This document shows positions 955 through 3,008 of a DNA stretch of 6,263 nt, piece by piece (the first letter of the stretch is position 1; the number at the start of each line of letters is the position of its first letter). The notes under the pieces were generated by a model. The model was not told where the DNA came from, made no database searches, and saw only the letters and a list, made by a program, of their open reading frames with translations. Both the position numbers and the translations under genes were made by a program. The stretch spans positions 1 through 6,263 of the forward strand of contig JADFQR010000079.1 in the NCBI GenBank assembly GCA_022561735.1, read 5' to 3'. This DNA is from Chloroflexota bacterium. GTDB lineage: Bacteria; Chloroflexota; Dehalococcoidia; UBA1151.

Positions 955-1686
955 ATGGCCGAGAGGTCTATGAAACCTGTCCGCGTGGAGGACGCCCTCC
1001 TGGAAGAGTTCAAGAAGCTGCCGGTCGCCACTATCTGGGGCGTCGTGCACACCACGCTGGGCGTCCCGTTCCCGTTCATGGAAAACGTCAACCTGATGTT
1101 CGCCCCGGGCGGAAAACGGCTCGCGGCGCGCGCCCGGACTCTGCGCTACCACCCGATGCGCGTCGATCTTATAAACGAGGTCCGGGACGATGAGAACTCG
1201 CCGGAGTACCGGGCGATGGGCCGATGCGGCCCCGGAGATGTGCTGGTGGCCGATCAGCAGGGCATCCGCTACGCGGGAATCGCCGGTGACGTGAAGCTGT
1301 TGCAGCTCAAGATGAACAACGCAGAGGGGCTTGTGACGGACGGGGCGATCCGCGACCTGAGCATCATCAGGGACGAGGATTACGACCTGATCGTGTACGC
1401 ACAGGGCAGAACGCCTTACGGCCAGCAGCCCTGGGGTGAGCCCGCCGAGGAGAACATAGACATCCAGTGCGGCGGCGCACTTGTGCGGCCCGGTGACGTG
1501 ATCGTGGGCGACGAGGACGGCTGCGTTGTAGTGCCTTCCTGGTTCGCCGAGGAGTGCCTGAAGATCACGATCGAGCACGAGGGCGCTGAGGCGTGGGTCA
1601 AGGAGAAGGTACTTGCGGAGGGCGTGCCCCCGGGCAAGTATTACGGCCCCAACCTGATGGAGAACTACCGGAACCGTAATGCGTAA
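955..1686 (+). CDS. RraA-like / HMG-aldolase-fold protein, copy 1
   Basis: A 243-residue protein of the RraA-like family (often annotated as dimethylmenaquinone methyltransferase or RNase E regulator; many members are divalent-metal-dependent 4-hydroxy-4-methyl-2-oxoglutarate / 4-carboxy-4-hydroxy-2-oxoadipate aldolases). Visible family marks are GPGDVLV at 92-98, a Gly (G111) followed about 21 residues later by TDGAIRD with the Arg-Asp pair R133-D134 that serves the active site and metal in the aldolases, and GDEDGCVVVPS at 185-195. The N-terminal stretch FKKLPVATIW (19-28) and the C-terminal tail VPPGKYY are shared with the next gene. The length is slightly above the roughly 160-230 residues of many relatives because of the C-terminal tail. 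The start is set by a strong Shine-Dalgarno. A soluble cytosolic enzyme is likely, but whether it is an aldolase, a decarboxylase or something else cannot be read here. No aromatic-degradation genes lie nearby. Confidence 0.88.
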   Translation: MAERSMKPVRVEDALLEEFKKLPVATIWGVVHTTLGVPFPFMENVNLMFAPGGKRLAARARTLRYHPMRVDLINEVRDDENSPEYRAMGRCGPGDVLVADQQGIRYAGIAGDVKLLQLKMNNAEGLVTDGAIRDLSIIRDEDYDLIVYAQGRTPYGQQPWGEPAEENIDIQCGGALVRPGDVIVGDEDGCVVVPSWFAEECLKITIEHEGAEAWVKEKVLAEGVPPGKYYGPNLMENYRNRNA

Positions 1687-1833: not shown

Positions 1834-1854
1834 CCCTCTCCCGCCGGGAGAGGG
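1834..1854. repeat. REP-like palindrome
   Basis: CCCTCTCCC and GGGAGAGGG form a perfect 9-bp stem around a 3-base loop, preceded by a pyrimidine-rich run (TCTCCCTCACCCTCG). This matches a type of dispersed intergenic palindrome common in GC-rich bacterial genomes. No T-run follows, so it is unlikely to be an intrinsic terminator. It ends only about 20 bases before the Shine-Dalgarno of the next gene and could affect transcript processing or translation. Confidence 0.6.
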
Positions 1855-1865
1855 GATTTGACCCT

Positions 1866-2621
1866 TTGTTCCCAAGGAGAGACATCGATGGCAGACCGGT
1901 CATTCACCCCGTGGACATCCCGGACAGCGTCCTGGCTCGTTTCAAGAAACTCCCCGTTGCGACGATCTGGAGTCATGTCGTGAGGGACGCGGGTGTCGCA
2001 CTACCGTTCATCGAGGGGTTGACTCTTTACACGCCGGGCATGGAGCGGCTTGCCGCTCGCGCCCGCACGCTCAGGTTCCTGCCGCCTCGCCCGGACCTTC
2101 TATCCGAGGTTCCATCCGGAGAGCACGCGCCCGAGTACGTGGCGATGGGCCGATGCGGCCCGGGCGATGTGCTGGTGTGCGACATGATGGGCAACACAGA
2201 CGCTTGCGTCTTCGGAGACGTGAAGGCGCTCCAGCTCAAGATGAACAATGCCGATGGGATCATCACCGATGGCGGCATGCGTGACCTGGACGTGATGGAG
2301 GACGAAGGCTACAACCTGATCGTGTACGCACGGAGCCGGACTCCTTATGCGTCAAACCCCTGGGCGCATCCTGCGGAAGAGAACACACAGATCCAGGTCG
2401 GCGGTGTTCTTGTGCGTCCCGGGGACGTTCTGGTGGGCGACGGCGACGGGGTTGTAGTGGTGCCGTCATGGTACGCCGAGGAGTGCGTCCAGATTGTCGA
2501 AGATCACGAAGGGGTAGAGGCGTACGTCAAGTTGAAGATCGAGCGCGACAATGTTCCGCCCGGTCGCTACTACCCGCCGTCCCCAGAGATGTGGGAGGAG
2601 TGGCGGCAATCCCTGAAATAG
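1866..2621 (+). CDS. RraA-like / HMG-aldolase-fold protein, copy 2 (apparent 5' frameshift)
   Basis: Paralogue of the preceding gene, identical at more than half of positions by eye, with the same motifs. Residues counted from TTG 1866: FKKLPVATIW at 26-35, CGPGDVLV at 97-104, G117 followed by TDGGMRD with the Arg-Asp pair R139-D140, GDGDGVVVVPS at 191-201, and a C-terminal VPPGRYY tail. The catalytic-type residues are intact. The in-frame start is a TTG at 1866 giving an unrelated lead (MFPRRDIDGRPV). The natural start is very likely ATG 1888 behind AAGGAGA: it reads MADRS, and inserting one base near 1901 joins it to IHPVDIPDSVLARF, which aligns without gaps to MAERS-MKPVRVEDALLEEF of copy 1. 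This is either a one-base sequencing/assembly error or a real deletion. If real, translation would depend on TTG 1866 (a GAGAGGGGAT stretch lies about 8 bases upstream) or GTG 1911. Hetero-oligomers with copy 1 are possible but not shown. Confidence 0.85.
   Translation: MFPRRDIDGRPVIHPVDIPDSVLARFKKLPVATIWSHVVRDAGVALPFIEGLTLYTPGMERLAARARTLRFLPPRPDLLSEVPSGEHAPEYVAMGRCGPGDVLVCDMMGNTDACVFGDVKALQLKMNNADGIITDGGMRDLDVMEDEGYNLIVYARSRTPYASNPWAHPAEENTQIQVGGVLVRPGDVLVGDGDGVVVVPSWYAEECVQIVEDHEGVEAYVKLKIERDNVPPGRYYPPSPEMWEEWRQSLK
1874..1880 (+). promoter_or_regulatory. Shine-Dalgarno of the ancestral ATG of RraA copy 2
   Basis: AAGGAGA stands 7 bases before ATG at 1888. That ATG encodes MADRS, matching MAERS of copy 1, but it is out of frame with the body of the gene. 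The site therefore marks the original start and supports a frameshift just after it. Confidence 0.7.
1888..1904 (+). other. Probable one-base deletion / frameshift site
   Basis: ATG GCA GAC CGG TC runs in one frame and ATT CAC CCC GTG continues in another. One extra base after position 1901 would give MADRS-IHPVDI, aligned residue for residue with copy 1. No slippery heptamer is visible, so programmed frameshifting is unlikely. Confidence 0.65.
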
Positions 2622-2649: not shown

Positions 2650-2656
2650 AAAGGAG
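2650..2656 (+). promoter_or_regulatory. Shine-Dalgarno deciding the start of the MerT-like gene
   Basis: AAAGGAG lies 7 bases before ATG 2664. No comparable site precedes the GTG at 2736 that would open the frame after the double TGA; the bases there are TGGTGATGA. Translation therefore most likely begins at 2664 and meets the TGA pair in frame. Confidence 0.8.
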
Positions 2657-2663
2657 ACCTGTT

Positions 2664-3008
2664 ATGGCACGTATTTTTCACGTAGAGGCGGTGCTGGCGC
2701 CGGTGAGGGCGCTGCTTCCGCTGCCCTGGTGATGAGTGGTTCCGGCCGCCCTGGGCCTGCTGGGATCCAGCGGGTCAGGGGTGGCTCTGGCGCCCGCGTT
2801 GCGGTTGCTGAACGGACCGTTCCTGGTACTGACCGTGGTCGTAATAGCCCGCGGCTGGTACCTGCAGTTGCCTCGGGGACAGTCGTCTCACGTGCGGGGA
2901 ACGCTGTGGCAACGCAGGTCGTTCTGGGTCCTTGCGGCGTCCACCGTTTTTTCGGTTGGCGTGTGGGGGCTTCGGTTTGCCGGGTTACTCGGAGGCGCCC
3001 CTTTTTGA
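2664..3008 (+). CDS. MerT-family-like membrane protein with TGA-TGA in place of Cys-Cys; candidate Sec-Sec selenoprotein
   Basis: Seen: from ATG 2664 the frame runs 22 codons (ending LLPLPW), meets TGA TGA at 2730-2735, and stays open to a third TGA at 3006, 114 residues in all. After the double TGA the protein reads VVPAALGLLGSSGSG, then a hydrophobic segment FLVLTVVVIARGWY (about 53-66) and a last membrane segment starting SFWVLAAS (about 86-108). Known: Tn21-type MerT is about 116 residues with a Cys-Cys pair at 24-25 in the first membrane helix that takes Hg(II) from MerP. Placing U23-U24 on that pair gives a gapless match: Pro at +3, Leu +6, Leu-Gly +9/+10, Ser-Gly +12/+13, Leu +22, Phe +29, and a Phe-Trp at the third helix. 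Inferred: both TGAs are read as selenocysteine, helped by the hairpin at 2745-2785. The protein has no Cys at all, including the second Cys pair of classical MerT. No merR, merP or merA is in the window, so mercury is one candidate substrate among soft metals. Alternatives are a pseudogene, or a 22-codon leader plus a separate 90-residue protein from GTG 2736. It lies 42 bp after RraA copy 2. Confidence 0.75.
2730..2735 (+). other. Tandem in-frame TGA codons, candidate selenocysteine pair
   Basis: Codons 23 and 24 of the MerT-like frame are TGA TGA, directly after TGG (Trp). They sit exactly at the MerT Cys-Cys position. TGA is a normal stop elsewhere in the window (pepA, and the end of this same gene), so a code change to Trp is unlikely. 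Confidence 0.7.
2745..2785 (+). promoter_or_regulatory. Candidate bacterial SECIS hairpin
   Basis: Upper stem of 8 bp: 2756-2763 pairs with 2767-2774 around the apical loop GAT (2764-2766), including one T-G wobble. Below a small internal loop (GG 2754-2755 opposite T 2775), CCCTG 2749-2753 pairs with CAGGG 2776-2780. Further down, GCC 2745-2747 pairs with GGC 2783-2785. Bacterial SECIS elements lie inside the coding region just after the UGA, with a G among the first two apical-loop bases and about 16-37 bases between UGA and loop. Here the loop starts with G, 31 bases after the first TGA and 28 after the second. SelB binding is inferred, not shown. Confidence 0.65.

What the first reader, a model, noticed from the sequence alone, without database searches (positions are those of the whole stretch)
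2664..3008. MerT-like transporter with two consecutive in-frame TGA codons exactly where MerT has Cys-Cys
A strong Shine-Dalgarno plus ATG opens a frame that meets TGA TGA after 22 codons and continues in the same frame to a total of 114 codons, the size of MerT. With TGA-TGA laid on the vicinal Cys pair, the flanking residues match MerT without gaps (Pro +3, Leu +6, Leu-Gly +9/+10, Ser-Gly +12/+13, Leu +22, Phe +29, later Phe-Trp). Cys codons TGC/TGT become TGA by one base, but decay would need two adjacent hits with the rest intact. Sec-Sec in a membrane metal site would be an unusual selenoprotein arrangement, and selenolates bind Hg(II) very tightly. A conventional gene caller would miss or truncate this gene.
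Basis: partly seen in the sequence, partly recalled or inferred. Interest (0 to 1): 0.95.

Follow-up and report, generated by a model that had tools for sequence, protein, structure and literature searches.

The report
MerT-like membrane selenoprotein with Sec-Sec pair
A small membrane protein of uncultured Chloroflexi bacteria, cut short in databases, appears to carry two selenocysteines side by side where mercury transporters carry two cysteines; no bacterial Sec-Sec pair appears in the catalogue of selenoprotein families read here.

Summary
A frame with a Shine-Dalgarno site opens at ATG 2664, meets TGA TGA at 2730-2735 and runs on to TGA 3006-3008 (114 codons). It is not a sequencing error or decay: of 140 homologues seen, 136 begin at or after the codon just behind TGA-TGA, 93 exactly there. 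Two JGI homologues (P0060, P0125) are full length, share the N-terminus (LLPLPW) and read W-W at the two sites; P0125 also reads a W right behind the family's usual end. I take W-W as TGA-TGA translated with TGA=Trp; their DNA was not seen. Behind the TGAs lies a -36.6 kcal/mol hairpin that fits the published bacterial SECIS model; 2 of 1000 synonymous shuffles reach it. With the sites masked, the family profile aligns to MerT without gaps, in the register that puts the sites on Cys-Cys. Best reading: a MerT-like selenoprotein family of Chloroflexota with a vicinal Sec-Sec pair. Not shown: Sec machinery in this genome, selenium in the protein, metal transport. The known Sec-Sec case is algal PDI_e; a 2026 table of 119 prokaryotic selenoprotein families lists none.

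The parts
2650..2656 (+). Shine-Dalgarno site AAAGGAG, 7 nt before ATG 2664
   Evidence: sequence
2664..3008 (+). read-through gene, 114 codons and stop: MerT-like small membrane selenoprotein candidate
   Evidence: translation with TGA read as U; 140 homologues
2664..2729 (+). N-terminal 22 codons MARIFHVEAVLAPVRALLPLPW, conserved in the two full-length homologues P0060 and P0125
   Evidence: 13 and 11 identical residues, 0 of 5000 shuffles as good for each
2730..2735 (+). TGA TGA, proposed Sec23-Sec24
   Evidence: in register with MerT Cys-Cys
2744..2786 (+). SECIS-like hairpin: 9-bp lower stem, 1x1 mismatch, 10-bp upper stem, loop GAU 2764-2766
2736..3005 (+). 90 codons behind TGA-TGA; databases hold the matching part of the homologues as separate proteins, mostly 81-90 aa
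   Evidence: P0002 (90 aa) is 97% identical

Best explanation
The gene makes one 114-residue membrane protein. The ribosome reads both UGAs as selenocysteine, directed by one hairpin whose loop lies 31 and 28 nt behind them (shown: frame, hairpin in this sequence, family-wide truncation; inferred: selenocysteine). The Sec-Sec pair lies where MerT-type mercury carriers have Cys-Cys followed by x-x-Pro. The inferred function is to take up or pass on a soft metal ion, Hg(II) being the first candidate, through two vicinal selenolates; redox work by a diselenide is the alternative. The family belongs to Chloroflexota (Dehalococcoidia, SAR202) and is cut at the TGAs in public databases.
For: Truncation at one place: 136 of 140 homologues start at or behind codon 25, 93 at codon 25 (the 140 fall into 125, 78 and 35 greedy clusters at 90, 80 and 70% identity). 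Their starts differ (codons 25, 26, 29, 33, 40 and others), as expected if gene callers take the next usable start. Two full-length JGI homologues with matching N-termini and W-W at the sites; P0125 goes on with W-ARKVL behind the F where its close relative P0081 ends, which suggests translation with TGA=Trp; P0060's nearest relatives at 78-87% identity (P0037, P0089, P0044) are truncated. Hairpin: 2 of 1000 within-gene and 2 of 1000 neighbour-codon synonymous shuffles as stable; in 61-nt windows at 5-nt steps on both strands only the start 2126 and the starts 2726-2741 are as stable; of 179 TGAs in the window only these two have an uninterrupted stem of 10 bp or more at SECIS distance; geometry within the published model (PMC13188914 section 5). 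Profile match of 23 family sequences to 17 MerT frames with the sites masked: score 24.8, E 0.0012, 49 columns without gaps, 0 of 300 locally shuffled MerT alignments as good (best shuffle 23.3); same register with Trp at the sites (E 0.0014) and with Cys (E 1.5e-6). TGA is an ordinary stop in this DNA: pepA ends in TGA, and so does this gene.
Against: No Sec machinery could be looked for in the same genome. The DNA of no homologue could be fetched, so there is no covariation for the hairpin and no direct sight of TGA-TGA outside the window; P0060 and P0125 could hold TGG-TGG. P0125's tail is not unique: P0095, P0103 and P0124 also run a few residues past the usual end, without W; P0125 has further W where relatives have A/F/V and R, so it may be a degenerate copy. 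No Cys homologue was seen within the family, unlike most selenoproteins. Pfam MerT does not match, P0060, P0006 and P0026 match no MerT model, and no mer gene lies in the 6.2 kb. The published SECIS rule is loose: 134 of 179 TGAs in the window pass my version of it. Folded with 30 nt more upstream the stretch is less unusual (z -1.66, 12 of 200 shuffles as good). AlphaFold models are weak (pLDDT 67 and 65, pTM 0.35).
Confidence: 0.77

Rival explanations
1. Two products: a 22-residue leader peptide that ends at TGA-TGA, and a separate 90-residue protein started by translational coupling at GTG 2736.
For: A GTG follows TGA-TGA directly, and 93 of 140 homologues are annotated from that codon.
Against: The upstream peptide is conserved and joined in frame at exactly two codons in window, P0060 and P0125; the other homologues are annotated from differing later codons; the sequence before 2736 shows no Shine-Dalgarno site by eye; the MerT alignment begins at the stops themselves.
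Confidence: 0.08
2. UGA-UGA is read through in this family, but as another residue (Trp, or Cys by an unusual tRNA), without selenium; or the family has Trp-Trp and the window is the odd one.
For: P0060 and P0125 show W-W; MerT has Cys there. UGA-reading tRNAs other than tRNA-Sec exist (recalled, from no call).
Against: TGA is a stop elsewhere in the window, so reading must be local, which is what a SECIS hairpin gives. If the family had Trp-Trp, gene callers would not cut 136 of 140 members at or behind the site. P0125 carries a W behind the usual end as well, a likely mark of a TGA=Trp gene call.
Confidence: 0.1
3. Pseudogene or sequencing or assembly error in a MerT-like Cys-Cys gene.
For: One base turns TGC or TGT into TGA.
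Against: 136 of 140 homologues are cut at or behind the same codon, from several sources; the frame behind it is conserved; no Cys-Cys version was seen among the 140.
Confidence: 0.02

Closest known systems
MerT, mercuric transport protein (PF02411), and MerTP fusion (NF033556)
   Same: Size, vicinal chalcogen pair followed by x-x-P, spacing of the L-G and G-A/S positions behind it; profile alignment without gaps over 49-52 columns from the pair on
   Different: Proposed Sec-Sec instead of Cys-Cys; no second Cys pair (134 of 140 homologues have no Cys); below the curated cut-offs; no mer operon in the window
MerT/CopZ fusion-like heavy metal transport selenoprotein NF045683; putative mercuric transport selenoprotein ABB16073.1 (tables of PMC13188914 and PMC9312934; a mercuric transport entry also in the table of PMC2398784)
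   Same: MerT-type proteins with selenocysteine are known; NF045683 matches residues 9-80 weakly (E 0.021)
   Different: PMC13188914 gives motif C/SxxU and one Sec; here two adjacent Sec are proposed, and the protein has 114 residues against 235 model positions of NF045683
Algal PDI_e with GUGUU motif (PMC7539508, passages)
   Same: Two consecutive selenocysteines, described there as the first found
   Different: Algal protein disulfide isomerase subfamily with three Sec; unrelated family
Metal-binding double selenoprotein MbdU NF045648 and other bacterial families with two Sec (PMC13188914 table 1)
   Same: Bacterial proteins with two Sec, some named as metal-binding
   Different: Listed motifs are CU, UxxU, CxU, UxxxxU and the like; none is UU

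Membership tests
MerT (PF02411) | Score above the Pfam gathering cut-off | tested here: not met
   P0001: no Pfam family at E<=1; MerT is not among the 11 families listed for the 23 members of A1
MerT (PF02411) | Homology at profile level | tested here: met
   hhalign with sites masked E 0.0012, 0 of 300 shuffles; with Cys E 1.5e-6; tool run A3 against A4, Cys in the first row, E 9.4e-5
MerT (PF02411) | Vicinal Cys pair in the first membrane helix | tested here: inconclusive
   The place holds TGA-TGA, in register with MerT Cys-Cys; that it is Sec is inferred; helix placement only from weak models
MerT (PF02411) | Second Cys pair in the cytoplasmic loop | tested here: not met
   No Cys in 134 of 140 homologues, nor in the window protein apart from the TGA sites
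MerT (PF02411) | mer operon neighbours (merP, merA, merR) | tested here: not met
   Only 6.2 kb seen: Peptidase_M17, two RraA-like, a metallo-beta-lactamase-fold gene, two tRNAs, a sigma factor
bacterial selenoprotein | In-frame UGA kept in homologues | tested here: inconclusive
   136 of 140 are cut at or behind the place and 2 full-length ones read W-W there, but UGA itself was seen as DNA only in the window
bacterial selenoprotein | SECIS hairpin behind the UGA | tested here: met
   Fits the model in PMC13188914 and stands out against synonymous shuffles and other TGAs; one sequence only, no covariation test
bacterial selenoprotein | Cys in the aligned position of homologues | tested here: inconclusive
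   None in the 140 family members seen; Cys-Cys in the remote MerT frames (17 of 17 have CC, 16 of 17 CCxxP)
bacterial selenoprotein | selA, selB, selC, selD in the genome | not testable with these tools
   No genome held for the window; no Chloroflexota genome handle could be had
bacterial selenoprotein | Selenium in the protein | not testable with these tools
   needs 75Se labelling or mass spectrometry

The most novel reading that the evidence does not exclude
A bacterial protein family in which a Sec-Sec dipeptide is the rule rather than a variant: one SECIS hairpin serves two successive selenocysteine insertions, and a membrane protein that mostly lacks Cys uses a vicinal diselenolate as a soft-metal (Hg) site, spread through uncultured Chloroflexota and cut short in databases.
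Probability: 0.6. Interest if true: 0.9.

Novelty: new variant of a known kind. Interest (0 to 1): 0.83.

Why it matters
Two adjacent selenocysteines behind one bacterial SECIS would raise a question the SECIS model I read does not treat (PMC13188914 section 5): whether SelB can deliver Sec-tRNA on two consecutive codons. A vicinal diselenolate in a MerT-like site would be a natural test of selenium as a mercury ligand in transport. It would also mean that about 140 database records (35 groups at 70% identity) lack their proposed active site, and it points to selenium use in Chloroflexota: a search for SAR202 with seleno* found 3 papers, none by title about SAR202 selenoproteins.

Tried and rejected
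Sequencing error and pseudogene: rejected on the family-wide truncation. Chance TGATGA: the hexamer alone is common, so it is not used as evidence. The published SECIS rule alone passes for 134 of 179 TGAs, so only hairpin strength and stem length are used. Rfam: only the two tRNAs at gathering scores; around the gene six weak hits below cut-off, four of them microRNA families, no SECIS family. Cytochrome bd subunit II (PF02322 in 9 of 23 members, best E 4.6e-5; source name of P0018): judged a membrane-helix likeness, not pursued. PDB by sequence: nothing useful for the family; the MerT profile finds MerF weakly (E 0.033). AlphaFold twice, too weak for a fold search, so none was run. Viral contigs: no relative in three protein scans and no hit in a pattern scan. 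Searches had 232 and 184 hits with 120 listed each and scored only the 7992 and 7990 candidates sharing most words, so remote Cys-Cys relatives may sit among what was not shown.

Papers: PMC13188914 sections 5 and 7 read in full and passages; passages only of PMC9312934, PMC2398784, PMC5424206, PMC5736913, PMC1794560, PMC7539508, PMC12013277 and PMC5715351; all else search listings, several of them capped. That no bacterial Sec-Sec is in print rests on table 1 of PMC13188914 and the searches, within the held library only.

Full report
What is there. The window holds, on the + strand, a frame with AAAGGAG at 2650-2656 and ATG at 2664. After 22 codons ending in TGG it meets TGA TGA (2730-2735), then GTG, and continues for 90 codons to TGA at 3006-3008. 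Neighbours are the end of a Peptidase_M17 gene, two RraA-like genes, tRNA-His, a metallo-beta-lactamase-fold gene, tRNA-Arg and the start of a sigma factor. The peptidase gene ends in TGA, so TGA is a normal stop here.

More than chance. The hexamer alone is not unusual (3 found, 2.55 expected). The family is. Three searches (22 hits; best 120 of 232 and of 184) gave 140 different records, P0002-P0141; they are not all independent: 125, 78 and 35 greedy clusters at 90, 80 and 70% identity. Aligned to the window, 2 start at residue 1 (P0060, P0125), 2 have unrelated N-termini aligned from column 24 (P0076, P0115), and 136 start at column 25 or later, 93 of them at column 25, the codon right behind the two TGAs (among these P0075 and P0083 begin with unrelated residues, and so does P0134 at column 27). 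Where the source keeps the first codon as read, 13 begin with V and 2 with L, as GTG and TTG starts would. The ten records that bear an organism name are Chloroflexi, Dehalococcoidia or SAR202. So gene callers cut the same gene at the same place in many contigs.

The full-length homologues. P0060 (112 aa, on a 20-kb contig) begins MFRLLHIEKPFLAVVSGLLPLPW-WW-VVPGLLG, and P0125 (119 aa, on a 10-kb contig) MQKLIHVEKPLVALLIGLLPLPW-WW-VVPSLLG. The window has MARIFHVEAVLAPVRALLPLPW-TGA TGA-VVPAALG. The N-terminal parts share 11 to 14 identical residues per pair; 0 of 5000 shuffles score as well for each pair. 136 of 140 records end at the window's last column; P0125 is one of four that run on, the others being P0095, P0103 and P0124. 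P0125 continues W-ARKVL behind the F with which its relative P0081 ends, which is what translation with TGA=Trp would give; I take W-W in both as TGA-TGA. Against this, P0125 has W at two more places where P0081, P0101 and P0111 do not, so it may be a degenerate copy. For P0060 the argument is that its nearest relatives at 78-87% identity (P0037, P0089, P0044) are cut at or after the site. Real TGG-TGG cannot be excluded without the DNA, which I could not fetch.

The hairpin. 2744-2786 folds into a 9-bp lower stem, a 1x1 mismatch, a 10-bp upper stem and a GAU loop; 2730-2790 has -36.6 kcal/mol (z -3.35, 0 of 200 dinucleotide shuffles as good; with 30 nt more upstream z is only -1.66, 12 of 200). 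Synonymous shuffles reach it in 2 of 1000 (codons of the gene) and 2 of 1000 (codons of neighbours); among 2482 windows of 61 nt over both strands, only those starting at 2126 and at 2726-2741 are as stable. The loop lies 28 nt behind the second and 31 nt behind the first TGA. The bacterial SECIS model asks for 16-37 nt, a 3-9 nt loop with G in the first two places, and a 4-16 bp upper stem (PMC13188914 section 5). That rule alone is loose: 134 of 179 TGAs of the window pass my version of it; only these two TGAs have an uninterrupted stem of 10 bp or more. By distance one hairpin can serve both codons; that it does is inferred.

Likeness to MerT. With X at both TGA sites, the profile of 23 family sequences aligns to MerT over 49 columns without gaps, beginning with the second site on the second Cys, at E 0.0012; 0 of 300 locally shuffled MerT alignments reach the score of 24.8 (best 23.3), and the reversed one scores 12.9. 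With Trp at the sites the register is the same (E 0.0014), with Cys E is 1.5e-6. In NCBIfam the window protein with Cys matches MerTP (E 0.0035) and the MerT/CopZ selenoprotein model (E 0.021), far below cut-off; P0060, P0006 and P0026 match neither. Pfam MerT does not match. In MerT the first Cys pair is needed for Hg(II) transport (PMC5715351, passages). The second MerT Cys pair is missing: 134 of 140 homologues have no Cys at all. So it may work like MerT at the pair, but it is not a member by Pfam's test.

Mechanism. Most likely UGA-UGA is read as Sec-Sec by SelB on the hairpin, and the pair binds a soft metal or does redox work at the membrane. Shown: frame, family, hairpin in one sequence, register with Cys-Cys. 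Inferred: selenocysteine, metal. Sec use is reported in deep-sea Chloroflexi single-cell genomes, with Sec-containing formate dehydrogenases (PMC5736913, passages), and 3 selenoproteins in Chloroflexi in 2006 (PMC1794560, passage), but the machinery was not tested here.

Novelty. A Sec-Sec motif was reported as first in algal PDI_e (PMC7539508, passages). Table 1 of PMC13188914, described there as 119 prokaryotic families or subfamilies, shows no UU motif in the rows that I read; it does list a mercuric transport selenoprotein with one Sec. Hence a new variant of a known kind.

Noticed in passing
window 955-1686 and 1866-2621: Two adjacent RraA-like genes (PF03737) directly upstream of the small gene, ending in TAA and TAG; they look like paralogues.
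   Followed up: partly
window 1834-1854: GC-rich inverted stretch CCCTCTCCCGCCGGGAGAGGG between the two RraA-like genes, possibly a terminator or a dispersed repeat.
   Followed up: no
P0060, P0125 (JGI records; no window coordinates): Proteins that look as if translated with TGA=Trp in a public metagenome annotation; such records may serve as a finder for other hidden UGA-Sec genes.
   Followed up: no
window 2126-2186: The only other 61-nt stretch of the window as stable as the one behind the TGAs, inside the second RraA-like gene.
   Followed up: no
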